Virus record (IMG/VR): IMGVR_UViG_3300025147_000409
Coordinates: 1 to 24,616 of that record
From: a virus
Reading direction: 5' to 3' (one strand)
DNA length: 24,616 nt
The translations under genes and the position numbers were made by a program. Shown here piece after piece: positions 4,056 through 22,030 of this stretch; position 1 is the first letter of the stretch; every line of letters starts with the position of its first letter. A model generated the notes under the pieces. That model saw nothing but the letters and a program-made list of their open reading frames with translations, did no database searches and was not told where the DNA came from.

Positions 4056-4550
4056 ATGGCAATAACTCAAAGCGGAATATATGGAAGCGATTTCGATGCA
4101 AAAGCACAGAATGAAGCGGTTTCCAGATGGGCATCAATGGTGCAACGCAAGTTAAGGGACCGAACTTCCTGGTTTGATCATGGCAAACGGGGAACAACAA
4201 ACCGTCCCGGGCGAATTGAGAAAAACCTTGGTGACAGTATCAAATCGGTGACAAAGAAACAATATGGAGTAATCGACCGAGTAACCTACACTTTCGAACG
4301 ACATGGTGTGTTTGTCCATAAAGGTGTAGGTCGTGGATACGAAATGCAAGGTGGTATGGTTGTTCGCACTGCCAAATCGGAAGATCCGGCCACCCGTCAA
4401 CCAACCTGGTGGGGAGATGATCCACGTCCCCGACTTCCAAATGAATGGTTTAATCCCTTACTGGAACAAACCCTTCCGGAACTAGCTGACAAACTTGCTG
4501 AAATTAATGCTGATGCGGTGTTGAATGCAACAAGGATGATGATAAGTTAA
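4056..4550 (+). CDS. Probable tail-completion or HK97-gp10-type protein
   Basis: This gene encodes 164 residues. It has an N-terminal helical part rich in Arg and Lys (about 15-45), a basic middle (RIEKNLGDSIKSVTKKQYGVIDRV), then strands carrying the segment FERHGVFVHKGVGRGYEM (about 88-105), and a C-terminal helix. This helix-plus-barrel layout, with an aromatic/His/Gly patch in the middle, is typical of small tail-completion proteins in Bacteroidota phages. Pfam-level membership cannot be shown from reading alone. It is the last gene of the first structural block; the usual next genes, the major tail protein and assembly chaperones, do not follow. Confidence 0.5.
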   Translation: MAITQSGIYGSDFDAKAQNEAVSRWASMVQRKLRDRTSWFDHGKRGTTNRPGRIEKNLGDSIKSVTKKQYGVIDRVTYTFERHGVFVHKGVGRGYEMQGGMVVRTAKSEDPATRQPTWWGDDPRPRLPNEWFNPLLEQTLPELADKLAEINADAVLNATRMMIS

Positions 4551-4551
4551 G

Positions 4552-4615
4552 GGCAGGCCTAATTGTCTTTCTGCGGATTCAAGTGCCAGTTTTTTTGTGT
4601 TAACCTGCCTTTTTT
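4552..4615 (+). terminator. Possible long-loop terminator after the first structural block
   Basis: GGCAGG at 4552-4557 pairs with CCTGCC at 4604-4609, followed directly by six T residues (4610-4615). The loop is long (46 bases), so the structure is weaker than a classic terminator, but it lies just after the last gene of the block. Confidence 0.4.
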
Positions 4616-4794
4616 ATCCAAATCGGTTTGTAAAAGTTCCATGAGGCTGTGTAATTTATCCGATTGGCATAGTAAATGTCCGGAAGCCCGCTGTGAATAA
4701 TCAAATAACAATATTTTAAATTGGCTATTAGAAAAATGGAAACGGCTAAGAATAAATATTTTTAATTGCGACTTCTTTTTTAATTAATTTTATT
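4616..4794. other. Gene-free AT-rich spacer before the sigma factor
   Basis: I see no open frame worth calling here on either strand. Base composition becomes very AT-rich toward 4740-4860, as expected for a Bacteroidota promoter region. Confidence 0.6.
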
Positions 4795-4802
4795 TATTTT
4801 TG
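4766..4802 (+). promoter_or_regulatory. Candidate promoter of the sigma factor gene
   Basis: TATTTTTG at 4795-4802 is a perfect match to the Bacteroidota -7 element TAnnTTTG, 68 bases upstream of the ATG at 4870. No TTTG lies at the usual -33 distance. A TTGCGACTT at 4766-4774 ends exactly 20 bases before the -7 element, the same spacing as in the four phage promoter-like sites (see findings), although the sequence match to TTGTCCTTT is only partial. Confidence 0.45.
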
Positions 4803-4869
4803 TTATTATATCCAGACTAAAAAAATTCTCTTCGTAATCTTGTCTTTATAACCTAAATACCTCTTTATT

Positions 4870-5733
4870 ATGAGACAATTGGTGATTTCAAAGAATTTCA
4901 CATGCAGAGATTCAATATCTCTGGAACTTTATTTCAATGAAATTAAGAGGATTCGCCTTTTAGAAGTTGATGATGAGGCTCTTCTTGCACAAAGGACGAA
5001 AGAAGGTGATCGCAAGGCATTTGAGATCCTGGTTACCGCGAATCTTCGTTTCGTGGTGTCGGTTGCAAAACAATATCAAAACAGGGGTTTAACACTTTCC
5101 GATTTAATTAATGAGGGAAATATTGGCCTTATAAAAGCGGCCGAACGATTTGACGATTCAAGAGGACTTCGGTTTATCTCTTATGCAGTATGGTGGATCA
5201 GGCAATCGATATTGCTGGGTATTTCCGAAAGTGCAAGGATTGTACGTATTCCGTTGAACAGGAGTAATCCAATTACAAAGGTGAGCAACGCGTTTGCCAA
5301 ACTCGAACAGGAATATAATCGTGAACCTATGCCGGAGGAGATTGCCGAATTGCTCCAATTTCAAGTTAAAGTTGTAGAGGATACTTTAAATATTTCAGAT
5401 TTTCCGGTATCATTTGATGCCCCGATATTCGAAGAAAGTGATAGTACAATGGTGGATATTTTTGTCAATAAGGATGCTGTAAGTCCGGATAGGGATCTCG
5501 TAAATGGTTCATTAAAAATTGAAATTGACCGGCTTCTTGCAAAATTACCTGATCTTGATAAAACTATTCTACGCTATTATTTTGGATTGCAAAGCGAGAT
5601 GGCTTTATCCCTCGAAGAAATCGGTATAAAAACAGGATATACCCGCGAAAGGGTTCGTCAGCTTAAAGAAAAAGCTATTAAAAAGTTGAAGGACAAGCAG
5701 AAATGCAGTCTTTTGCGATCATTTTTGGGATAA
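4870..5733 (+). CDS. RpoD-family (sigma-70) RNA polymerase sigma factor, prophage-borne paralogue
   Basis: The 287-residue product has the length and layout of Bacteroidota primary sigma factors. It starts MRQLVISK, has region 1.2 (about 15-45), region 2 (about 50-120; NLRFVVSVAKQYQNRGL, LINEGNIGLIKAAERFD, FISYAVWWIRQSI), region 3 (about 120-195) and a region 4.2 helix-turn-helix near the end (LSLEEIGIKTGYTRERVRQLKEKAIKKL). It should bind core RNA polymerase and direct it to promoters. It differs from the usual housekeeping protein at places I would expect to be invariant, such as GISESARIVRIPLN where ALAEQSRIVRLPLN is typical, so it is read as a paralogue. It stands alone, with its own promoter and a downstream palindrome, inside the prophage. 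It could drive the unusual late promoters in this window or divert host polymerase; neither is shown. Confidence 0.93.
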   Translation: MRQLVISKNFTCRDSISLELYFNEIKRIRLLEVDDEALLAQRTKEGDRKAFEILVTANLRFVVSVAKQYQNRGLTLSDLINEGNIGLIKAAERFDDSRGLRFISYAVWWIRQSILLGISESARIVRIPLNRSNPITKVSNAFAKLEQEYNREPMPEEIAELLQFQVKVVEDTLNISDFPVSFDAPIFEESDSTMVDIFVNKDAVSPDRDLVNGSLKIEIDRLLAKLPDLDKTILRYYFGLQSEMALSLEEIGIKTGYTRERVRQLKEKAIKKLKDKQKCSLLRSFLG

Positions 5734-5810
5734 AATGTCATTTAACTTTCAATGAATCTAATTCTTAATTTCTTTACTTTGATGATATTTTTTGTTTATA
5801 TGAAAATGAT

Positions 5811-5843
5811 TATTAGTTAGTTTGTTAGTAGTTTTTAGTTAGA
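5811..5843 (-). repeat. CTAAC-rich element, copy A (inverted)
   Basis: Read on the - strand this tract contains CTAACTAAAAACTACTAAC followed by AAACTAACTAA. It is closely similar to + strand tracts at 6442-6473 and 8431-8460. As in those copies, a hairpin (here 5858-5885) lies just before it in the reading direction. Confidence 0.55.
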
Positions 5844-5857
5844 CGTTAATTTTCGAT

Positions 5858-5890
5858 ACAACGAAGGGGAATTCCCCTTCGTTGTTGATT
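5858..5890. terminator. Perfect 28-bp palindrome, probable terminator after the sigma gene
   Basis: Bases 5858-5885 form a perfect palindrome centred on GAATTC (arm ACAACGAAGGGGAA). A stem of at least 12 pairs with an AATT loop is followed by TGATTTTA. It lies 125 bases after the sigma stop. The T tract is short, so it could also be a processing or binding site. It adjoins the CTAAC-rich element at 5811-5843 on the other strand. Confidence 0.5.
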
Positions 5891-6411
5891 TTACTTCTGG
5901 CTATTTCTTAGTAGTTTTACTACTCTTATGTCCCAATAATTCTTGTATACATTAAATCTGCCCCCCTATTCCAAGAGCCAATTGGCAGTAGATCGCTGCA
6001 ATCTGTGGTTCCTTCTCAGATGCTAAGTTTAGTACTACGCATTGAAAATGTTGTAAATGTGTCATTTTGCTGGAAGTGACAATAGGATTACCTGGCCAGT
6101 GCCGATTCCCCTGCACTGATAGATTCCATTCTGGCTGTTACTGTTCGTGGAATAACCCACGATCTACATTCAGGCGATCTATCTATCTACTTTGGAGAGA
6201 ACGTGATAAAAACCTCAAACGGTAAGGCCAGAAATCAAACTCTAAGACTCTCATGAGGATGTCAGCGTGTACTGCTTATTGTCTGGAACCAACCTGCCGG
6301 GCTCTCGAAAGGACCTGTGAAGCATTTTCGTGGATCAATTTAAAAAGTTGTGGGGACTTGATTATTATGCATAGATTAAGGGCATATCATGTGTCTGCCC
6401 TATTAATGTTG
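5891..6411. other. Stretch without a convincing gene, possible decayed coding sequence
   Basis: About 520 bases with a less AT-rich composition than the surrounding spacers but no frame with a sensible start and length. Three neighbouring open stretches read like protein but end in stops or change frame. One (about 5918-6076) contains SQMLSLVLRIENVVNVSF. Another (6086-6256) contains IDSILAVTVRGITHDLHSG. A third begins at 6258 (DVSVYCLLSGTNLPGSRKD). This could be a broken gene or chance; a structured RNA is also possible, since CAGTGC at 6096-6101 can pair with GCACTG at 6113-6118. Confidence 0.3.
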
Positions 6412-6443
6412 AAAAGGATGAAACCAGGCGGTTCCATCCTTTT
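6412..6443 (+). terminator. Hairpin with T tail preceding CTAAC element B
   Basis: AAAAGGATG at 6412-6420 pairs exactly with CATCCTTTT at 6435-6443. AACC/GGTT continue the stem across one A-C mismatch, with loop AGGC. This has the shape of an intrinsic terminator, although no clear gene lies just before it. Confidence 0.55.
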
Positions 6444-6473
6444 ACCAAACTAACTAACCTAACTAAACCTAAC
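6442..6473 (+). repeat. CTAAC-rich element, copy B
   Basis: The tract ACCAAACTAACTAACCTAAC continues with TAAACCTAAC. It follows the hairpin at 6412-6443 directly, and shares GGTTCCATCCT...ACCAAACTAACTAAC with copy C at 8420-8460. Confidence 0.6.
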
Positions 6474-6565: not shown

Positions 6566-7396
6566 CTATTTTTTTTGGGCTTCATTGTAAGGCTTGGATA
6601 GCTGAATTCGTTGTTCCATGGTTAGGAAAGTGTGTTTTTCCTTAGCTGGTTCCCTCGGAACAGGAATTGGTTTTATTTCTGATAAAAGTTTTTCCCCAAT
6701 TGGATTCAACATGGAGGGATCATTTATACCCTCCATCGTTGCCATTTCCGAAACCGGGTATGCATTCATCTTTTCATACGGGTAAGCATTAAGCAATCCT
6801 AATACATCAGATAAATGGTTCGATGCTCTTATCCATTCCATTTCCTCCGATCTTGATAAAATTACCGGCATCCTTTTAACGCCGATGCTTTGCAATAACG
6901 GATTGGCCGTTGTAGTAATAATTGTATATGAGAAAACAGTTTCCTTCGTATCCGGGTTTTTCCATTGATCGTATAATCCGGCAAAGGCAAATGGTCTTTT
7001 CTTATTTCGCAAATAGACAAGATAGGGTTTATTCTGAGTGGACCATTCGTAGTAGGCATCAGCAATCACAAGGCACCTTTGAAATTGAATGGGTTTCCGA
7101 AAGGCTTGTTTCAAAAAGATGGCTTTCGATCCATTGTATCCTGGATCGTTAACGCTGTTTTTATCCCCTTCAGCCCTCGCATTTAGGAGATTCATCGGTT
7201 CTTTCGCATAAAATGGCGTCATCCCAAATTTGAATACCTGTAACTGGTGCGGATCCTGGCAAGTGATGACATAGGTATTATCACCACCAGAAACGGCGTA
7301 CAATTTGGATATTTCAACAGTATTTGGATCGAGGTGGGCATTAAACCGGGCCTCAATTCGTTGAAGGTCACTCGCCAAAACAAACTTCTCACACAT
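6566..7396 (-). CDS. SRAP (YedK/HMCES-like) protein lacking the active-site histidine
   Basis: The 276-residue protein belongs to the SRAP family, which bonds covalently to abasic sites in single-stranded DNA through the cysteine exposed after removal of Met1. Cys2 is present, the conserved Asn is N72 (LLNARAEG), and the catalytic Glu is E117 in ADAYYEW. The usual I-H-(D/N)...R-M-P motif reads I171-G172-V-K-R-M-P, so the conserved histidine (His160 of E. coli YedK) is replaced by Gly and the loop is shortened. In YedK this His is linked to chemistry at the crosslink and its reversal, so this paralogue may hold crosslinks longer; that is inference. A charged C-terminal tail follows the domain (about 240-276). 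The start codon lies inside a 44-bp palindrome. The gene is downstream of a second SRAP gene, with 75 bases between them. Confidence 0.9.
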   Translation of the reverse strand: MCEKFVLASDLQRIEARFNAHLDPNTVEISKLYAVSGGDNTYVITCQDPHQLQVFKFGMTPFYAKEPMNLLNARAEGDKNSVNDPGYNGSKAIFLKQAFRKPIQFQRCLVIADAYYEWSTQNKPYLVYLRNKKRPFAFAGLYDQWKNPDTKETVFSYTIITTTANPLLQSIGVKRMPVILSRSEEMEWIRASNHLSDVLGLLNAYPYEKMNAYPVSEMATMEGINDPSMLNPIGEKLLSEIKPIPVPREPAKEKHTFLTMEQRIQLSKPYNEAQKK

Positions 7397-7471: not shown

Positions 7472-8209
7472 CTAAAAAAAACTCAATTCCGGGTAATCAA
7501 CCTTCTCCAGACTCTGAGCAACATTACGGTTGTTCTTTGCGCTATTTACATTCTGCGAAACAGTGTAGGCGGACATGTCTGATTCCGGGTATGGTTTTAT
7601 AAGATCATTGATTTGAGCCTGCGTCAAATTTGGTTCAATCCATCTCTTTTCATCCTCCGGCGAAAGAATAAGCGGCATTCGCTTTTTTAGGTTGTGAATA
7701 CTTTCCATCAGGGGATTTGCAGGAGTCGTTAAAATACTAAACGTATTTCTGATTTCGCCGGTGCCCTTGTCAACCCACGATTCATAAATGCAGCCCAGGG
7801 AAAAAATGTCACTGCTTTTAGTGTGGATGAAGTAAGGGTACTTCACTTTATTCAGGTCGCGCCACTCATAGAAACCGTTAATTCCAAGTAAACACCGCTT
7901 TGTGGTAATGCTGTTTCGAAAGGATGGTTTTTCAAATACAGTCTCCCCAACAGCATTTAACGTCATGTCCTGTATATCTTTGGCTGCCTTGTTATCCTTG
8001 ATCCAGAATGGAATAAGCCCCCATTCAAAGGAAAATATTCCGTCATGTTTAATGATCGGCAACTGCGGATGTGAGAATCCACTCACAAAATAATAGGCGG
8101 GTAATTCATTCTGGATAGCTTGTCTGATAGCGTTATCAGGTAAAGCCTCTTTGTAACGTTCTGCATATTTCAGCAGTTTCTTTTCCATGTATGCAATGTT
8201 GTAACACAT
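7472..8209 (-). CDS. SRAP (YedK/HMCES-like) protein with complete active site
   Basis: I chose the ATG at 8209, not an upstream in-frame ATG at 8269, because SRAP proteins need Cys as residue 2 and this start gives MCYNIAYMEKK. The 245-residue product has all the key residues: Cys2, N85 (TLNAVGETVFEKPSFR), E115 (NGFYEW) and H172 (IHNLKKRMPLIL). SRAP proteins form a thiazolidine link with abasic DNA and shield it from breakage; in bacteria they are often linked to DNA-damage responses. It is upstream of the second SRAP gene on the same strand, so the two probably share a transcript. Both leaders end in a similar AATCATGTGT, which suggests an old duplication of gene plus leader. Two small palindromes precede it. 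Confidence 0.92.
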   Translation of the reverse strand: MCYNIAYMEKKLLKYAERYKEALPDNAIRQAIQNELPAYYFVSGFSHPQLPIIKHDGIFSFEWGLIPFWIKDNKAAKDIQDMTLNAVGETVFEKPSFRNSITTKRCLLGINGFYEWRDLNKVKYPYFIHTKSSDIFSLGCIYESWVDKGTGEIRNTFSILTTPANPLMESIHNLKKRMPLILSPEDEKRWIEPNLTQAQINDLIKPYPESDMSAYTVSQNVNSAKNNRNVAQSLEKVDYPELSFF

Positions 8210-8222
8210 GATTCTTATTTTT

Positions 8223-8280
8223 AATACTTCGTTAAGTATAATGCTTTTGCAATCTTTAGAAGGCTGCAATTAACAATTGC
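8223..8280 (-). promoter_or_regulatory. Two small palindromes upstream of the first SRAP gene
   Basis: ATACTT (8224-8229) and AAGTAT (8234-8239) form an inverted repeat around CGTT. GCAATT (8266-8271) and AATTGC (8275-8280) form another around AAC. Both lie within 75 bases of the start codon at 8209 and are candidate operator half-site pairs. Confidence 0.4.
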
Positions 8281-8593: not shown

Positions 8594-8772
8594 TAATGGG
8601 GGAAAAACAATGGTAATAACCCTTACTTTAATGTACAGACAAAGTGTTTTTTAACCTTGTGATCAACAATATAGTAAGTATATATCTATTGATCAGATAA
8701 ATGGCGTTGAGAGTAATTGATATTTTCTTGTCTTCGCGATTTTTTAAGGTACTTGTTGCCATTAAAAAAAAT

Positions 8773-8809
8773 CTGTCCTTTCCCTCCCCTTTGCATGCTA
8801 TTATCTTAG
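8773..8809 (+). promoter_or_regulatory. Phage promoter-like site 1 (truncated tape-measure copy)
   Basis: CTGTCCTTT (8773-8781), exactly 20 bases, then TATCTTAG (8802-8809), a one-mismatch form of TAnnTTTG. The start codon follows at 8826. The site belongs to the duplicated segment shared with 10617-10653. Confidence 0.65.
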
Positions 8810-8825
8810 CCAGAAACAATCTTAA

Positions 8826-9752
8826 ATGGCAACAAGTTACAACCGAAGAATCAATTTATTCATTAACGGGCAACAGGTTAGCAATGATGTAAGAAGCATC
8901 CGTGCCGAGATGCAACGACTTGTGAATGAACAGGCCCGGATGACACTTGGCAGCCAGGAATACATTGCGCATGCACGCCGGATACGGGACCTTCGGACCA
9001 TTCTGGCAGAGCACAACCAGCAGATTGCTGCGGTTTCAAGATCGTGGAGTCTAAGCAGGATGGGTGATGCTTTCAACCGATACTTTGCACTGGTTACAGC
9101 TGCTGTAGCATCTATTACCGGCCTGATCATGGGTTTTAAGGCTTTGGTCAAAACCTTTAACGATTACGAAGAGCGGGTTGACAACCTTTCGGCGCTCACC
9201 GGTCTGGCAGGTTCGTCACTCGACTGGCTGTCGCAGAAGGCAAAAGACTTAAGTACCGCAACACTCGAAGGTGGAATCCGGGTAACACAGGGCGCCCAGG
9301 AAATTGTGGATGCTTTTACAAAGACAGGATCGGCAAGGCCGGAGTTACTCAAGAACAAGGAGGCACTGGCCCAGGTAACGCAGGAGGCGATCATTTTAAG
9401 CAATGCAGCCAAGACAACGCTTCAACCGGCGATTGAAGCGCTGACCATGGTGATGAACCAGTACAATGTTCCGGCATCAGAGGCACGCCGGATCATTAAT
9501 GCGCTGGGTGCTGGTTCCAAAGAAGGCGCCGGTGAGATACCCTACCTGACCACCGCATTCGAAAAAGCAGGTACCGTTGCCGCTGATGCAGGTCTGAGCA
9601 TTGAGACGATGGTAGCCACCATCGAGACACTGGCTCCCCGGATTTCACAACCTGAGATTGCCGGGCGTTCGCCTTTGTCCCCCCTGCTTAAATTTCAGCC
9701 ATTTTTAATCCGTATTTCTCCAATAACATTGGTGTCCTGTCTGGATAGTTAG
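8826..9752 (+). pseudogene. Truncated N-terminal copy of the tail tape-measure gene
   Basis: The first 282 codons (8826-9671) match the start of the intact tape-measure gene at 10669 with only four amino-acid differences (Q30T, T58S, V94I, Q183E). Homology then stops abruptly after GRS, and the frame runs 26 unrelated codons into the end of a cupin gene on the other strand. The break falls within the region that carries the PhageMin_Tail/TP901-type domain, so it cannot work as a full tape measure. No internal stop or frameshift is present and its promoter-like site is intact, so a 308-residue product could still be made. Differences from the intact gene are mostly synonymous, which argues for import from a related phage instead of a recent local duplication followed by decay. 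Confidence 0.85.
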
Positions 9753-10381
9753 TAAACCCATACTTTTTTGCAACTGGTTCAAATAAATCTTGTGCTTCCT
9801 TTGACTCAGGTGAAATGTTCTCCGTCTTGCACTTATTTACAGTTCTAATAATTTCGTCCAAAAAATTATCAAAGTCCTGATTTAGAAACATATCATTGAA
9901 CTTAGCTGGTTTATCTGTCTGATTCCAATAAGCGTGAGGAATACCGTGAGGTCTTAAATGCCAGTCACCAGCATTAACTTCAAAAACTTCGTCCCCGACA
10001 AGAACATGAACAGTCCCTTCCAAAACATGCATTATTTCGTCCAATTTATCGTGCATGTGAACTGTAACTCCCAGAGTTTTTGGTTGAAGTGTTTCTTCAG
10101 TACAGCTAAATTGTCCATTGGTCTGGTTACTCCTTATTTTGAATCCAAAGTCAATGCCGTCATTCGCTTTAACAGTTGTCCCAGCCTTAGTTAAAACAGG
10201 AGATAAAGGTTTGTCAATATTAGTTTCAGTCACAGGACTTTCTCCTTTACTAGTGCAGCTAAGATTTGTAAAAATAACTCCACTTAGAGCTCCAAATGTT
10301 AACTTTCTAATAATGTCTCTTCTAGTCTGATTTGAGTCCATAGTTTTATCTTTTTGATTAGTAATTACAAAGGTGACGCCC
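9663..10381. repeat. Imperfect inverted repeats bounding the cupin gene
   Basis: GGGCGTTCGCCTTTGT at 9663-9678 reads inward on the + strand. Its near match GGGCGTCACCTTTGT reads inward on the - strand from 10381 to 10367. They bracket the cupin gene closely. The left one overlaps the last nine bases of tape-measure homology, so chance is not excluded. Confidence 0.4.
9688..10341 (-). CDS. Cupin-domain protein with Tat-like/lipoprotein signal
   Basis: I take the ATG at 10341, which gives 217 residues (MDSNQTRRDIIRKLTFGALSG); an ATG 14 codons upstream would put residues before the signal. The twin Arg (7-8), hydrophobic stretch (about 14-27) and Cys29 suggest Tat export and perhaps lipidation, though the residue three before Cys is Asn, not the usual Leu. 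The single cupin domain has HMH (95-97), E102 and G109, then a perfect second motif G125-x5-P-x-G-x2-H136-x3-N140. These residues would bind a metal, as in quercetinase-like or other small cupin oxygenases and isomerases; the substrate is unknown. It lies between the two tape-measure copies, reads against them, and is more AT-rich, so it looks like imported cargo. Confidence 0.85.
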   Translation of the reverse strand: MDSNQTRRDIIRKLTFGALSGVIFTNLSCTSKGESPVTETNIDKPLSPVLTKAGTTVKANDGIDFGFKIRSNQTNGQFSCTEETLQPKTLGVTVHMHDKLDEIMHVLEGTVHVLVGDEVFEVNAGDWHLRPHGIPHAYWNQTDKPAKFNDMFLNQDFDNFLDEIIRTVNKCKTENISPESKEAQDLFEPVAKKYGFTNYPDRTPMLLEKYGLKMAEI

Positions 10382-10616
10382 AACTACTAAATAGCGGAAA
10401 GTTTACAGTACTTTCATGTACTTCAATTGTTTTCAATCTGCTATGTTTTTCATAGTACTTTACTTCATCTCGCTTATCTGCAAATCAATCCTACCTAATT
10501 CCATTTTTTTACTAAATGAATGTCGATACGTATTAATTTCATTAATGTTACATTTTCTTCATAATTATTTTCATCAAGTGCATATGTCATTTTGTTGCTC
10601 TGGGCGTAACTAAAAT
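10382..10616. other. AT-rich spacer between the cupin gene and the intact tape-measure gene
   Basis: No supportable gene. The longest item on the - strand is a frame of about 31 codons at 10495-10590. GGGCGT appears again at 10602-10607, close to where homology with the first tape-measure copy resumes. Confidence 0.5.
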
Positions 10617-10653
10617 CTGTCCTTTCCCCCTCCATACTCCTCCAGTAAATTAG
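10617..10653 (+). promoter_or_regulatory. Phage promoter-like site 2 (intact tape-measure gene)
   Basis: CTGTCCTTT (10617-10625), exactly 20 bases, then TAAATTAG (10646-10653), a one-mismatch TAnnTTTG. The ATG is at 10669. The 20-base spacer differs from that of site 1 in sequence but not in length. Confidence 0.65.
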
Positions 10654-10668
10654 CCAAAAACAACAAAA

Positions 10669-13600
10669 ATGGCAACAAGTTACAACCGTAGGATCAATCT
10701 ATTCATTAACGGGCAACAGGTTAGCAATGATGTAAGGAGCATTCGGGCCGAGATGACAAGACTTGTGAATGAACAGGCACGGATGACACTCGGGAGCCAG
10801 GAGTACATTGCTCACGCACGTCGCATTCGTGATTTACGGAGTATCCTGGCTGAACACAACCAGCAAATTGCTGCGGTTTCAAGATCATGGAGCCTAAGCA
10901 GGATGGGTGATGCTTTCAACAGGTACTTTGCACTGGTTACAGCGGCCATTGCATCAATTACTGGCCTGATCATGGGTTTTAAGGCTTTGGTTAAAACCTT
11001 TAACGATTACGAAGAGCGTGTTGACAACCTTTCGGCTCTTACCGGACTTGCCGGTTCATCACTCGATTGGCTGTCACAGAAGGCAAAAGATTTAAGCACC
11101 GCCACGCTCGAAGGAGGAATCCGGGTAACACAGGGTGCCCAGGAGATTGTGGATGCTTTCACAAAAACAGGATCGGCACGCCCGGAGTTACTCAAGAACA
11201 AGGAGGCACTGGCGGAAGTAACTCAGGAAGCAATTATCCTTAGTAATGCAGCTAAAACAACACTGCAACCTGCGATTGAAGCGCTTACAATGGTTATGAA
11301 CCAGTATAATGTTCCGGCATCAGAGGCACGCCGGATCATTAATGCGCTTGGTGCTGGTTCCAAAGAAGGCGCCGGTGAGATACCTTACCTGACCACCGCA
11401 TTTGAAAAAGCTGGTACCGTTGCCGCTGATGCAGGTCTTAGTATTGAAACCATGGTAGCCACCATCGAGACGCTTGCCCCGCGGATTTCTCAGCCTGAAA
11501 TTGCTGGTCGATCACTTAAAGGGGTATTGCTTGATTTACAACAGGGAGCTGATGATATCAACCCTTCAATTGTCGGTATGACAACTGCCCTGGAAAACCT
11601 GGGTAAGAAAAACCTCAGTATTACAGAGCTTACCAAAATGTTTGGTAAAGAGAATATTACAACAGCGGCAATTCTGATCAACAATGTTGAAGAGCTGAAG
11701 AAATACGAGAAAGCGGTAACCGGAACCAATGTTGCCATCGAACAGGCAGCGATTAATACCGATAACAACAACGCCAAACTGGCGCAGGCAAAAAACAGGA
11801 TCAACATCGTATCGATCGAACTGGGAGAAAAGCTGGCACCTGCGATGTCGCTGGTTACCGGTTATTTTGGAAAGACACTAAAGTTTGTTTCTGTCCTGGT
11901 GGATGTTTTCACCGTTTACGGAAGAACAATTATTACCGCAACCGCGGCTATTGTTGGCTATACGCTCGCTGTGAAACTTCAGACAATGTGGATCAACCGA
12001 TCCAACCAGGCCACACTTAGTCAGATCATTGCCTCTAAAGCACATGCCATCATCACAACGGCAGAAATTGTGGTCACCCAATTATGGGCTGCAGCGATGA
12101 TGGTCCTAACAGGGAATCTCCGGGGAGCGAACCAGGCACTTCGTGTACTGACCAATACCATGAAGCTGAATCCGATCGGTCTTCTCACTACTGCAATAAT
12201 AGCCGGAGCTTCAGCCCTTCAATATTACACACAAAAGAAAAAGGAAGCCGCTGCTGCCGCCAATGCAAATAACCAAATCCTCGAAGAAGAAAAAATGTTG
12301 CTCAATGGTTACTCCTCGGAAATTGTTAAAGAGCGTGATAACCTGAATGCAATGGTTGGTTCCATCATCCGGACCAACGAAAATGAAGAACTTCGGGGGA
12401 CACTGATTAAAAAGCTGAAAGATCAATATCCTGCCTTTTTGGGGATGATCGAAAATGAAAAAATAAGCAATGAACTGTTGGCGGTTAGGTTGGCGGAGGT
12501 AAATACGCATTACAGCGAGAAAATTAGGCTTGCTGCCCTCAAGGCAAAAGGGGAAGCCATCAACAATGCAGCCGTAAAGGCGGAAGAAAGAAAACTGGCG
12601 ATCGAAGAACGCCTGGTGCAGATTGAAAAGGAGAGTTACCGTACCGATGGCAAAAAGAAACAAGCAGAGGTTAACGCCCTTAATGCAGAGTACAATCAGT
12701 TAAACCTCACACTCTCGGATTATAAAAAAAGGCAGGAAGAGATAACCACAGCTTCCACCAGGCTTGACACCGAAATAAAGGAATACGATACTCTTCCTTA
12801 TGTGGAAAAGCAGCTTTCCGGATTATTGTCGGCAAGAAAAACTTATGGCGAGGGCCTCAAAAAAGCAATGGCGTCAGAGAACCAGGAGGAGATCGCTCAT
12901 TACCAGAAACAATTGAATCTTACTGACTCACAAATCAAACTTTTTGAGGATAAGAGAGAAGCACTTTTAGCTTCAGCAAAACAAATTAAACCTGTAACCC
13001 CAATAAACCACGATGATCCCGATGAAAGTGATGGTTCAGGTAGCGAGGGTAAAAAGGTCAAAAAAACCGAAGCTGAAAAAGATGCTGAAAAGCTCCGCAA
13101 ATTCTTCGAACTGGATAATGAAGAGCAAAAGGATGCTATCCGGACAGAACTCAATAAACTGGGGAAAGATGGTGTAGCAGCTTTGGCGAAAGGGATTGAG
13201 GATGAAATGGCTGATGCAAAGGATACGAACAGGTTGCTCACTGAAATGATGACTCCTGAAAAGGAGAAAGTTGACGAGGCAGGTGACTATGCGCTGAAAA
13301 AATATTACGAAACGTTGGAGGGTCAGCAAACCCTGCTCATGGCTCAACATGAAGCCGGTTTGATCAGCGAACAGGAGTTCCAGGATAAAATTGTTGAAAT
13401 TCAGAAAAAGGCAATCGATGAAAAGCTGGAAAAGCAGGTAGAAGGTGCAAAGAAATATCAGGAGGTAACCACAGCTGCGGCCAACTTCGTGAGCGTATTA
13501 ATGGAGGCTGAACTGGCTGATGCCGGTGATAACGAAGAGAAAAAGAAGCAGATCAAAAAGAAATACGCCGATGCAAATATGGTCGTTACCATCGGACAAA

Positions 13601-14181
13601 TCATCTCGGCGACTGCATTGGGAATTATGCAGTCGTTTGCACAACTCGGACCGATTGCCGGAGCTATTGCAGCTGCCTTTATCGGAACAACAGGTGCCGT
13701 ACAAGTGGCTATGTCCGTATCGGAAAGGAACAGAATGAAATCGCTGCACATCGGAGGCTTCACCGGCGAAGGCGGAAAGTATGAACCGGCTGGCGTGGTT
13801 CACAAAGGAGAATATGTGATCCCGCAGGAGGGAGTTAACAACCCCAGACTTCAGCCGCTGATCAGTCTTTTTGAAACAGCCAGACGCAATCATACCCTTG
13901 CACGTCTTGAACTAAGTCCGGTTGTGCAGACAATTCACCAGTCACGCGGATATTCTTCAGGAGGATATACTTCAGGCGCTTCCTCCGGTCCACTACCCTA
14001 CGCTGTTGCACAGGATAGCGGCAAAAGAGATGGAGATCCGGAACTAAAGCAACTTGTGCAGGAATTGAACAAGTTGCTAAAGGCGGGTATTCAGGCGAAT
14101 ATTCCAAGGTATGGAACCAACAGCCTGTCAGACGCTATGGAGGAAATCACCCGGTTTAACGCTAAAATTTTCAAGAAATGA
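10669..14181 (+). CDS. Phage tail tape-measure protein
   Basis: The 1170-residue protein sets tail length and is ejected ahead of DNA during infection. Its layout is typical: an N-terminal helical part (1-110), a TP901/PhageMin_Tail-like domain (about 120-380, with the run SRSWSLSRMGDAFNRYFALV before it), hydrophobic segments (about 420-450, 500-520 and 970-1015, the last rich in Ala/Gly), and long charged coiled-coil stretches (about 525-930, with Lys/Glu-rich blocks near 780-830). Near the C-terminus it carries GGFTGEGGKYEPAGVVHKGE (about 1029-1048), a motif I associate with Bacteroidota tape measures. The stop codon overlaps the next ATG (ATGA at 14178-14181), so the two genes are coupled. 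The tail tube should be about 0.15 nm per residue long, that is roughly 175 nm, by the general rule for this family. Confidence 0.93.
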   Translation: MATSYNRRINLFINGQQVSNDVRSIRAEMTRLVNEQARMTLGSQEYIAHARRIRDLRSILAEHNQQIAAVSRSWSLSRMGDAFNRYFALVTAAIASITGLIMGFKALVKTFNDYEERVDNLSALTGLAGSSLDWLSQKAKDLSTATLEGGIRVTQGAQEIVDAFTKTGSARPELLKNKEALAEVTQEAIILSNAAKTTLQPAIEALTMVMNQYNVPASEARRIINALGAGSKEGAGEIPYLTTAFEKAGTVAADAGLSIETMVATIETLAPRISQPEIAGRSLKGVLLDLQQGADDINPSIVGMTTALENLGKKNLSITELTKMFGKENITTAAILINNVEELKKYEKAVTGTNVAIEQAAINTDNNNAKLAQAKNRINIVSIELGEKLAPAMSLVTGYFGKTLKFVSVLVDVFTVYGRTIITATAAIVGYTLAVKLQTMWINRSNQATLSQIIASKAHAIITTAEIVVTQLWAAAMMVLTGNLRGANQALRVLTNTMKLNPIGLLTTAIIAGASALQYYTQKKKEAAAAANANNQILEEEKMLLNGYSSEIVKERDNLNAMVGSIIRTNENEELRGTLIKKLKDQYPAFLGMIENEKISNELLAVRLAEVNTHYSEKIRLAALKAKGEAINNAAVKAEERKLAIEERLVQIEKESYRTDGKKKQAEVNALNAEYNQLNLTLSDYKKRQEEITTASTRLDTEIKEYDTLPYVEKQLSGLLSARKTYGEGLKKAMASENQEEIAHYQKQLNLTDSQIKLFEDKREALLASAKQIKPVTPINHDDPDESDGSGSEGKKVKKTEAEKDAEKLRKFFELDNEEQKDAIRTELNKLGKDGVAALAKGIEDEMADAKDTNRLLTEMMTPEKEKVDEAGDYALKKYYETLEGQQTLLMAQHEAGLISEQEFQDKIVEIQKKAIDEKLEKQVEGAKKYQEVTTAAANFVSVLMEAELADAGDNEEKKKQIKKKYADANMVVTIGQIISATALGIMQSFAQLGPIAGAIAAAFIGTTGAVQVAMSVSERNRMKSLHIGGFTGEGGKYEPAGVVHKGEYVIPQEGVNNPRLQPLISLFETARRNHTLARLELSPVVQTIHQSRGYSSGGYTSGASSGPLPYAVAQDSGKRDGDPELKQLVQELNKLLKAGIQANIPRYGTNSLSDAMEEITRFNAKIFKK

Positions 14182-19500: not shown

Positions 19501-22030
19501 TGGCACAAAGAAAAGCCTAGCAACCATTCAGGCATTAGCAGCAACGGAGTCAATATATAAAGTAACCAATAACGGCGCGGTAGTTCATACCGTTCTGGGA
19601 AATGGAAATTTTGGCATCGGGAAAACCCCAACAACAGCGCTGGACGTAAATGGGACAGTTGCAACAATAGATTTTATTTGCGGAGCACATCGGTATAATT
19701 CGGAGATTGGCTTTACAAATATCGCTGGAACAAATTGGCAGAATATAAGAGCTGGTGTGATAAATGGCGCAAGTGCTGTTTTTTCAGGTACAGTTACAGC
19801 ATCAGGAATAATTTCACCTGTAATGAGAAGTAGCTCAACTATAACATTTACAGATATTGCTGGTTCAACTTATCAGACAGTCCAAACTGGAAATCTTAAT
19901 AGTTGGGAATTTACAGCAATTACTGGAGTATTTTCAAGTATAGTAACAGCATTAGGAGGAAATTCAACACAATGGAACACGGCATATAATAAAACAATCC
20001 CACTCACAGTAACAGGACTGACGAGCACCGGGGAAGTCGGCATCGACAGGAACCTAAGAGTTTTAGGAAACCTAATTGTGGACGGAACAATCCAATTCTA
20101 CGGGGCAAGCACTGGCGGAACCGGAGGAGGCGGGGCCACGGCATTTTGGCAGCTTTCAGATGTTGCGGACGACGTCGCCAACGCAGTATACGGCGACCTT
20201 GTCATGTACAATGGTACCCACTTTGCAAGGATCAACCAATCAGCACTCGCTCCAGCCGTGCACACGCACACCATCACACAGGTAACCGGGTTGCAGACAG
20301 CGCTAGACGGGAAGAGCGACTTACACACTCATCCGTACAGAGCAGACAACTGGACACCGGGCTGGGGAGAGGTGACCTCAAAACCAACAACACTATCCGC
20401 TTTCACCAACGACCTCGGCAATTACGGTGGGTTTGCATTGGCACATACGCATCCATATCTTTCAGACAGCGACTCCCGGATTGCAAACTGGAATACCGGG
20501 TACGCCCATAGCCAGTCAGCGCATTATACGGGTGCCGATATTTTTGAATGGGCTAAAGCGGCAACAAAGCCAGCTTACACCAAAGCGGAAATCGGACTAG
20601 GAAGCACAGATAACACAGCGGACGCAGCGAAGTCGGTAGCCTACGCAGCAAACGCAGGGCTACTGCTTGGTAGGTCGGATTACTCACTCACAAGCCACAC
20701 ACACAGCTACGAGCCAGTCAACGATTCAATTTTTAAATTAAGAGACAGCCTGAACGTTACTGATATTAACACGTTTATAAATCGCCAAAGTGGAAATTAT
20801 ACAGTAACACATCCGGGATACTCAAGCCTGTTGACGGTTTTTAGAAACAGCGGAGGAAGCACTTCTGCATTGGAAGTATGGAGCGAATATACTGGAGTTT
20901 TCAGACTAAGGCCAACGGTTGATAGCAACCGATACGGCAGCTGGGCGACACTTTGGCACGATGGAAATTTTACACCATCCAATTACGCGCTCACACACAC
21001 GCACCCTTACCTTTCAGATAGCGACTCCCGGATTGCAAATTGGAACAGCGGGTACACCCATAGCCAGTCAGCGCATTATTCAGGTGCTGATATTTTTGCA
21101 TGGGCTAAAGCGGCAACAAAGCCAGCCTACACCAAGGCGGAGATCGGACTAGGAAGCGCAGATAACACAGCGGACGCAGCGAAGTCGGTAGCCTACGCAA
21201 CATATATTAAATCAGTTTCGCATCCTAATGATTTCTGGTTGTCAAATACGTGGGACGGGACGTACTGGCAGTTAACATCCAATCACGCGTCGCCAGTAAA
21301 CGTCGGGCATGCGGACAACGCTGGTTTATTAAATGGCAGATCAGATTACCTACCACTGACGGGAGGAACGATCTCAGGATCGATAACAGCAACAGAGATT
21401 TATAACAACGGATGGTTTAGAACCAATAACTCAGGCGTGGGATTATTCAACCAGGCAACATCAAACCACTTTTATTCAACCGGAGGGTTTTGGAATATCG
21501 GGTACGCCGGGACGCAGGGAATCTGGCTAAAGAACGGACACGAGGGTGCAACATTAGGAGCTTTGTACGCAGAGTCAAACGGAAACATGGGATTGCTGAA
21601 TTCATATGGAAATTGGGCAGTTCAGGTTTATAATGGAGCAACCGGAGGAGGATATCTGCATGGCAGTTGGGGTTGTAGCGGAAATTTCACGGTTCAAGGC
21701 ACAATCCAATTTTACACCGCATCCGACCGCAGGTTAAAAACTGACTTAGAAGCCATTACCAATCCGATCGCAAAAATAAAATCACTGACCGGGTATTTTT
21801 TCAATTATACTGATCAGGCTCTGACACTCGGATCTTATACATCCAGGCGCGATGTTGGATTGATTGCCCAGGATGTTGAACTGATATTACCCGAGGCAAC
21901 CGGTAAACTTTGGGGTACCGAATTTTTAGGTTACAAAGCGGATAAGTTGATTCCGCTTTTGGTGGAGGCGATGAAACAACAACAGGTTGAAATTGAAAAT
22001 TTAAAACAACAATTAAATGGCCGGTTATAA
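16547..22030 (+). CDS. Large mosaic tail fibre with C-terminal S74 intramolecular chaperone
   Basis: The product is 1827 residues. The N-terminal third (about 1-420) is probably the virion-anchoring part. The middle consists of repeated fibre modules with HTHPYL motifs, Gly-rich linkers and GNFGIGKTPTTALDVNGT-type segments. The last 102 residues form a Peptidase_S74 (endosialidase-type) chaperone domain. The cleavage site is A-SDRRLK, with Ser1726 and Lys1731 as the expected dyad, and a C-terminal coiled coil (LVEAMKQQQVEIENLKQQL) follows. In this family the domain helps the trimer fold and then cuts itself off. Repeats include residues 562 and 1201 onward (WQLSDVADD) and a 206-base pair at 20442 and 20994. 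Codon and base use change between about 18540 and 19980. It probably binds the host surface. The next gene overlaps its end by 14 bases. Confidence 0.9.
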   Translation: MSTIIQQPDSLSFSQNLRKFVISSSEIVSLKLNKGEEQILDEIYQPGANNQIEVDLHSIVDSVLSVSLPCTGLVTEQVAGVADFIATVDGTAIAFRVIKGGVSELQEMVTSFTNNHFLSWQVQDKKVLQHQPEWLTVYSNAPRNLKAKTYYLDNSEASILLASLATGKLLSVDVSWASINALAEKKIPIAWDVWFEDDDGTRLSYVQRYCLRNPDVGEKIFIWANTLGGIDTISLTGSDEDDKKLEHLIAEMGDDSLLQYQTSKNREVKQSTGYLTSEESRWIEDFFYSQRRYLLDNEGSVRQIVVAGSKIVSSNADDLFDYEFTYRFATESQLLNLDRSFDPLPVLEVPADFFLTELLSGLPVAPYSDSLLLAVQSPFAQAWQKLSMAQLWNSALPDLVDGSTISVINGKLQVHGVSGGIGAATWSELQNKPFKALSNYFSVDQQGILTLANSYALIHTHPYLSNADPQISNWNNAFGWGDHAKIGYAIAHTHPYRPDTWIPGWGEVTGKPVWTEKMGWNGTAVTVSNDLHITGKLIVDDTIMFYGLGTGGGSGAGASALWQLSDVADDVANSVYGDLIMYNGTHFSRINQSSLAPSVHGHTITQVSGLQGILDAKADIHAHPYLSDSDARIATWTAKQAALSGTGFVKSTAGTISYDDTNYIPLTGGALAQTSTLGVGRTFKLQAPLIVATNYARGFIGGNLSFDTVSGLWKNDAAIGTDITGILFANEGVIEIFANKSQSLQTTYTQAQLDALATMKISPSAFLVNGTGTFTGSTSALSFIKTGGLATEFLKANGTIDTNVYIPRLNPQFGGDLNTIITNGFSGLGLATNAPVGNNYASSIISISGGDTNHTTQLYLNALSKDIQIRGRVSNVFDTAWTKVFTEKNLNLITVPFTAASLNLGAPLLRSKLHIHDGAITLSDTDVVHGMTDYYYEGTFGVLGALSQTAGGLSISGVSDIDNTPMRITGTIGSEVPYSAAIILNGTKKSLATIQALAATESIYKVTNNGAVVHTVLGNGNFGIGKTPTTALDVNGTVATIDFICGAHRYNSEIGFTNIAGTNWQNIRAGVINGASAVFSGTVTASGIISPVMRSSSTITFTDIAGSTYQTVQTGNLNSWEFTAITGVFSSIVTALGGNSTQWNTAYNKTIPLTVTGLTSTGEVGIDRNLRVLGNLIVDGTIQFYGASTGGTGGGGATAFWQLSDVADDVANAVYGDLVMYNGTHFARINQSALAPAVHTHTITQVTGLQTALDGKSDLHTHPYRADNWTPGWGEVTSKPTTLSAFTNDLGNYGGFALAHTHPYLSDSDSRIANWNTGYAHSQSAHYTGADIFEWAKAATKPAYTKAEIGLGSTDNTADAAKSVAYAANAGLLLGRSDYSLTSHTHSYEPVNDSIFKLRDSLNVTDINTFINRQSGNYTVTHPGYSSLLTVFRNSGGSTSALEVWSEYTGVFRLRPTVDSNRYGSWATLWHDGNFTPSNYALTHTHPYLSDSDSRIANWNSGYTHSQSAHYSGADIFAWAKAATKPAYTKAEIGLGSADNTADAAKSVAYATYIKSVSHPNDFWLSNTWDGTYWQLTSNHASPVNVGHADNAGLLNGRSDYLPLTGGTISGSITATEIYNNGWFRTNNSGVGLFNQATSNHFYSTGGFWNIGYAGTQGIWLKNGHEGATLGALYAESNGNMGLLNSYGNWAVQVYNGATGGGYLHGSWGCSGNFTVQGTIQFYTASDRRLKTDLEAITNPIAKIKSLTGYFFNYTDQALTLGSYTSRRDVGLIAQDVELILPEATGKLWGTEFLGYKADKLIPLLVEAMKQQQVEIENLKQQLNGRL
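20442..20647 (+). repeat. 206-base direct repeat within the fibre gene, unit 1
   Basis: This unit encodes HTHPYLSDSDSRIANWNTGY through to ADAAKSVAYA. It recurs at 20994-21199 with the same length (offset 552 bases) and few substitutions. Confidence 0.9.
20994..21199 (+). repeat. 206-base direct repeat within the fibre gene, unit 2
   Basis: This is the second copy of the unit at 20442. A distinct segment encoding about 116 residues separates the two, so recombination between units could remove or swap that segment. Confidence 0.9.

What the first reader, a model, noticed from the sequence alone, without database searches (positions are those of the whole stretch)
8826..11514. Truncated tape-measure copy whose differences are nearly all synonymous
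Seen: over 282 aligned residues there are four amino-acid differences, but in codons 1-60 alone I count 22 differing codons, 20 of them synonymous. Homology starts at the promoter-like site and ends abruptly at 9671. Inference: both sequences diverged while under selection as working genes, so the fragment was probably brought in from a related phage recently, or it still has a function as a short N-terminal protein. A simple local duplication followed by decay would not give this pattern.
Basis: partly seen in the sequence, partly recalled or inferred. Interest (0 to 1): 0.65.

Follow-up and report, generated by a model that had tools for sequence, protein, structure and literature searches.

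The report
Scar of two recombined tail genes
A phage of Bacteroidota-type bacteria carries the first quarter of a second tail-length gene, most likely the leftover of an off-register crossover between two related phages at a spot where such phages swap passenger genes; it is a good fossil of ordinary phage mosaicism and probably not a working gene.

Summary
In detail: 90 of 282 codons differ, 86 synonymously, 4 amino-acid changes (20 of 22 synonymous in codons 1-60); dN/dS about 0.02; homology runs from the leader (8768) to 9670/9671. The fragment is as far from its neighbour as either is from another phage, L004 (dS 0.648, 0.652, 0.636), and has no amino acid of its own among 37 sequences. 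So the divergence arose between phage lineages, and the truncation is recent or still constrained.

Context decides what it is. The interval between a 164-aa tail gene and the tape measure gene is a cargo hot spot in this family (defence and toxin genes in relatives). The fragment ends its own hot-spot unit: hairpin element, two SRAP genes, leader, tape-measure start. That element matches sequence directly after the tail gene in relatives, and a 9-bp repeat ties it to the window's own tail gene. Hence the fragment probably belongs with the left arm; cupin, full gene and right arm come from a second phage, joined by one off-register crossover at 9671. None of 50 related contigs has a second copy. 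An old local duplication is not excluded by the tree (p-AU 0.154).

The parts
4056..4550 (+). conserved tail gene (164 aa, called g167 in my calls) that forms the left border of the hot spot
   Evidence: homologues at the same place in 40 related loci; no Pfam match
4547..4555 (+). 9-bp direct repeat TTAAGGGCA, left copy, spans the stop codon of the tail gene
   Evidence: second copy 6376-6384, no third on either strand
4556..6375 (.). inserted sigma-factor module between the two 9-bp repeats
4870..5733 (+). sigma-70 family gene (regions 1.2-4), 287 aa
   Evidence: Pfam; at most 59% to sigma genes of 11 related genomes
6377..6470 (+). hairpin element homologous to sequence just downstream of the tail gene in L049, L055, L058
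   Evidence: 78% to L049:4550-4645; fold z -2.7
6566..7396 (-). SRAP (HMCES/YedK-type) peptidase gene 1
   Evidence: PF02586 7.9e-43
7472..8269 (-). SRAP peptidase gene 2
   Evidence: PF02586 3.6e-47
8768..8825 (+). leader of the tape measure gene, fragment's copy (CTGTCCTTTCCC...TTAGCC)
   Evidence: alignment of 37 TMP starts
8826..9671 (+). 5' fragment of a tape measure gene (codons 1-282); ORF runs on to 9752 with 26 unrelated codons
9671..9672 (.). recombination junction; cupin stop codon lies 17 bases beyond
   Evidence: the junction sequence was found in no other viral contig
9688..10383 (-). cupin-domain gene, cargo of the second phage
   Evidence: PF07883 1.7e-13
10382..10606 (.). intergenic stretch shared with L004 only
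10612..10668 (+). leader of the complete tape measure gene
10669..14181 (+). complete tape measure gene, 1170 aa
   Evidence: PF10145 4e-16, phrog_28 3.9e-31

Best explanation
The window is a recombinant of two related phages. Phage B supplied the left arm up to its tail gene, its hot-spot cargo (two SRAP genes) and the first 282 codons of its tape measure gene. Phage A supplied a cupin gene, the leader, a complete tape measure gene and the tail genes to the right. One off-register (illegitimate) crossover, from codon 282 of B's tape measure gene to just beyond the 3' end of A's cupin gene, made the junction; selection kept it because A's tape measure gene is whole and has its own leader. The truncated copy is a recent by-product. 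A sigma-factor module was inserted at the end of the tail gene, probably as a separate event. Shown: two divergent tape measure copies, hot spot, element homologies, absence in relatives. Inferred: single crossover, direction, lack of function.
For: Three-way equal divergence frag/full/L004, dS 0.648/0.652/0.636; site patterns 14/13/8 for the three possible pairings. All four residues that differ from the full copy are shared with L003 or L004, none is unique among 37 sequences. 0 of 50 distinct related contigs has a second N-terminal copy. The fragment sits where a tape measure gene should: after a leader and after hot-spot cargo. 6377-6470 matches the sequence just past the tail gene in L049/L055/L058, and TTAAGGGCA occurs at 4547 and 6376, so tail gene and SRAP unit were probably once adjacent. 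An SRAP gene pair occurs in a related prophage (L131, with the portal-like homologue at 69%). The flank 10382-10606 upstream of the cupin gene belongs to an L004-like phage. Truncation cuts PF10145 at position 127 of 201.
Against: The parent phages A and B were not found; scans with SRAP1, SRAP2, cupin and the junction gave no carrier of the same arrangement. Left and right arms cannot be told apart by similarity to L003/L004. A tree with fragment and full gene as sisters is not rejected (p-AU 0.154). The 9-bp repeat may instead be a target-site repeat of the sigma insert or chance.
Confidence: 0.68

Rival explanations
1. The unit SRAP1-SRAP2-leader-TMP start was carried in from another phage as an insert with two crossovers, into a phage that already had cupin and the full gene.
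For: The same divergence data; cargo differs in nearly every member of the family, so units do move.
Against: Needs two junctions; the left one coincides with the tail-gene border and a 9-bp match to the window's own tail gene, which one crossover explains more simply.
Confidence: 0.14
2. The truncated product (282 residues of tape measure N terminus plus 26) is made and works, for example by blocking tail assembly of competing phages.
For: Intact reading frame, leader conserved, no private amino-acid change; tail assembly is a known defence target: Tab recognises the tape measure protein (PMC10884400, passages read).
Against: Domain cut at 127 of 201 positions and an unrelated tail; absent from 50 related contigs; recent arrival explains the intact frame; it would be expected to harm the phage's own tails (inference).
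Confidence: 0.06
3. Old local duplication of the 5' end, kept under selection since about the time of the split from L004.
For: Fragment plus full gene as a clade is not rejected (p-AU 0.154).
Against: L004, L003 and all other relatives have one copy; pairing frag+full is supported by no more sites than frag+L003 (13 against 14); the fragment has different upstream cargo.
Confidence: 0.06
4. Misassembly of two co-occurring phages in a metagenome.
For: The record is a virus contig of a metagenome-type collection and the junction is unique.
Against: Chimeras normally form at shared k-mers (general knowledge); the two sides of 9671 show no such shared stretch; both borders of the unit are anatomically sensible.
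Confidence: 0.06

Closest known systems
Illegitimate or relaxed recombination between related phages (phage mosaicism)
   Same: abrupt joint inside a gene, partial duplication of a flanking gene, functional copy retained
   Different: the duplicated piece is still present and undecayed; usual mosaics show only the trimmed product (general knowledge, not from a call)
Anti-phage hot spots of P2/P4-type elements (PMC9122126, search listing and start of abstract only)
   Same: fixed core genes flank a slot with different defence or toxin genes in each relative
   Different: other phage family (Bacteroidota), slot lies just before the tape measure gene, cargo mostly antisense to the tail genes in the closest members
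Tab / Tai tail-assembly interference (PMC10884400, PMC11364771; passages)
   Same: tape measure protein or tail assembly is involved
   Different: those are dedicated proteins, not truncated tape measure copies; no functional evidence here

Membership tests
Tape measure proteins (PF10145 / phrog_28) | full gene matches the family over the conserved domain | tested here: met
   10669-14181: PF10145 4e-16, positions 2-188 of 201; phrog_28 3.9e-31
Tape measure proteins (PF10145 / phrog_28) | fragment holds the whole conserved domain | tested here: not met
   8826-9752 matches PF10145 positions 2-127 of 201 only
Off-register crossover scar | two copies diverged like copies of different phages, not like a recent duplicate | tested here: met
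   dS 0.648 frag-full against 0.652 and 0.636 to L004
Off-register crossover scar | parents with each arm exist | tested here: inconclusive
   not found with SRAP, cupin or junction queries
Phage cargo hot spot | same core genes flank different or no cargo in relatives | tested here: met
   of 40 related loci 9 have a 76-179 base gap without an ORF of 60 aa or more, 31 have at least one such ORF (near-identical records included)
Integron cassette insertion (attC) | attC-like element at the 3' end of the window's cargo | tested here: not met
   no match in the window to a model of the attC-like repeat; matches in L068, L015, L029 and elsewhere in L004
Functional truncated protein | expression and phenotype | not testable with these tools
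   no transcript or protein data

The most novel reading that the evidence does not exclude
The slot between the tail gene and the tape measure gene in these Bacteroidota phages is a defence-gene landing site fed partly by integron-type cassettes from host genomes, and swapping of slot contents between co-infecting phages throws off truncated tape measure genes like this one, a few of which may act as tail-assembly poisons against rivals.
Probability: 0.15. Interest if true: 0.65.

Novelty: new member of a known kind. Interest (0 to 1): 0.36.

Why it matters
Off-register crossovers are assumed to be the raw step of phage mosaicism, but their untrimmed products are rarely caught (general knowledge); here the redundant gene start is still in frame. 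The hot spot it marks, in front of the tape measure gene, holds different defence or toxin-antitoxin genes in nearly every close relative and is a place to look for new systems.

Tried and rejected
Tried without result: Rfam on the window (one sub-threshold snoRNA match); viral scans with SRAP2 (one 56% partial relative without the tail genes), cupin (none), SRAP1 (none), junction sequence (none); sigma scan (80 loci kept, none carries the other window genes I queried). Linking the arms to L003 or L004 by identity in 400-base bins failed. Trees did not resolve the four-taxon group.

Considered and rejected for the window: integron cassette insertion (no attC-like element; a GTTRRRY-like core beside the cupin start is seen by eye only, motif recalled). 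The attC reading of the repeat in other loci is itself mixed: 25 of 27 copies lie within 100 bases 3' of a same-strand ORF against 8.9% for random places, but arm pairing beats letter shuffles at z -2 or lower in only 6 of the 22 elements tested, the model built from it held only 9 base pairs, and integrase hits in the 11 host-type genomes were all below the curated cut-off, as in the 14 controls.

Papers: PMC9892861 abstract and outline; PMC10884400 and PMC11364771 passages; PMC9122126 search listing only. No paper on this fragment or this slot appeared in the listings; I read no further than said.

Full report
Observation. The 308-aa ORF 8826-9752 matches codons 1-282 of the tape measure gene 10669-14181. 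Changes fall 9/2/87 on codon positions; dN/dS is about 0.02 by two methods. The DNA match runs 8768-9670 against 10612-11513 at 87.4%. Both copies start behind the same leader; of 37 tape measure starts aligned, 27 hold GTCCTTTC within 75 bases upstream and 17 hold TTAGCC, both window copies included in each. After 9671 the ORF continues for 26 unrelated residues, and the cupin stop codon lies 17 bases on.

Age and origin of the divergence. The nearest relatives in IMG/VR, L003 and L004, have one copy each. The fragment differs from the full gene by dS 0.648, from L004 by 0.652, and the full gene from L004 by 0.636. Informative sites split 14 (frag+L003), 13 (frag+full), 8 (frag+L004). Trees leave the group unresolved; fragment and full gene as sisters give p-AU 0.154, fragment with L004 0.06, full gene with L004 0.13, and fragment with L003 is the best tree's choice at 78/87. 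So a duplication as old as the split from L004 is not formally rejected, but a recent local copy is out. The fragment has no private residue among 37 sequences. As most random changes alter a protein (general knowledge), only very few neutral changes can have followed the truncation, unless the product is still selected; this test cannot tell those two apart.

Relatives. Counting distinct contigs by name (51, of which L024 lacks the N terminus), 50 have a tape measure N terminus and none has a second copy within the DNA held. Limits: flanks were at most 10 kb, some records are short, and some are near identical.

The hot spot. The gene left of the interval (4056-4550) and the tape measure gene flank a variable slot. 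Of 40 related loci with both borders, 9 have only 76-179 bases between them and 31 hold at least one ORF of 60 aa or more. In the seven closest members cargo differs each time: L003 PDC-S49 (PADLOC 2.6e-224, a KAP NTPase), L027 AbiA-like reverse transcriptase, L028 zeta toxin and L029 caspase, L049 HepT with nucleotidyltransferase, L004 two proteins without a family above cut-off, and the window. The main cargo genes of these seven are antisense to the tail genes, except the window's sigma gene. A leader at each tape measure start may be what makes an antisense insert tolerable just there (inference).

Anatomy of the window. From left: tail gene; a sigma-70 gene (+); two SRAP genes (-); leader and tape measure fragment; cupin gene (-); a flank shared with L004 only (10382-10606); leader; full tape measure gene. 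The stretch 6377-6469 is 78% identical to L049:4550-4645, which starts just after the tail gene's stop, and also matches L055 and L058 there. TTAAGGGCA stands at the window's tail-gene stop (4547) and at 6376, in the same register, and nowhere else. I read this as: before the sigma module came in, the SRAP unit followed the tail gene directly. Then tail gene, SRAP unit, leader and fragment are one ordinary hot-spot unit of phage B, cut at codon 282, and cupin plus full gene are the unit of phage A. One off-register crossover suffices. An SRAP pair also occurs in a related prophage (L131, with the portal-like homologue at 69%), so SRAP genes are at home in this family.

Against this: neither parent was found; the arms show no different affinity to L003 and L004; the 9-bp repeat could be a target-site repeat of the sigma insert, which changes little, or chance.

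Function. The fragment keeps 127 of 201 positions of PF10145 and has an unrelated tail. Tail assembly is a known defence target (Tab, PMC10884400), so a poison role is conceivable, but nothing here supports it beyond an intact frame. I put it at about 6%.

A side result. In three hot-spot loci (L068 with its twin L074, L015 with its twin L063, and L029) the cargo's 3' end carries a repeat of about 130 bases that also sits behind genes in Bacteroidota genomes. It looks like an integron attC site, but the structural test is mixed, and the window has none.

Verdict. Ordinary mechanism, unusually fresh example, at an interesting hot spot.

Noticed in passing
L068:5023-5156, L015:9787-9925, L029:3003-3138 (hot spot) and L004:768-902: A repeat of about 130 bases at the 3' end of cargo genes, attC-like in outline, also present in host-type genomes (26 matches in G008, 10 in G007, 7 in G011), 25 of 27 copies within 100 bases 3' of a same-strand ORF against 8.9% at random; arm pairing mixed. 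Suggests integron cassettes as one source of phage cargo; precedent for attC in phages PMC9892861 (abstract).
   Followed up: partly
L089 (G008:C15:14000-22500): Run of small same-strand genes, several followed by the same repeat, as in a cassette array.
   Followed up: partly
window 6411-6443; L049, L054, L055, L057, L058 left borders: Repeated hairpin AAAAGGAT..CCATCCTTTT, several copies per locus in L055, L057 and L058, perhaps a terminator.
   Followed up: no
window 4870-5733: Phage-borne primary-type sigma factor, best relatives 59% in G001 and in viral contig L136.
   Followed up: partly
window 20442-20650 and 20994-21202: 209-base direct repeat, 91% identical, inside the 1827-aa gene with an S74-peptidase domain.
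   Followed up: no
window 9664-9679 and 10371-10385: Short imperfect inverted similarity (GGGCGT..CCTTTGT) at both ends of the cupin stretch, seen by eye; may have helped the crossover or be chance.
   Followed up: no
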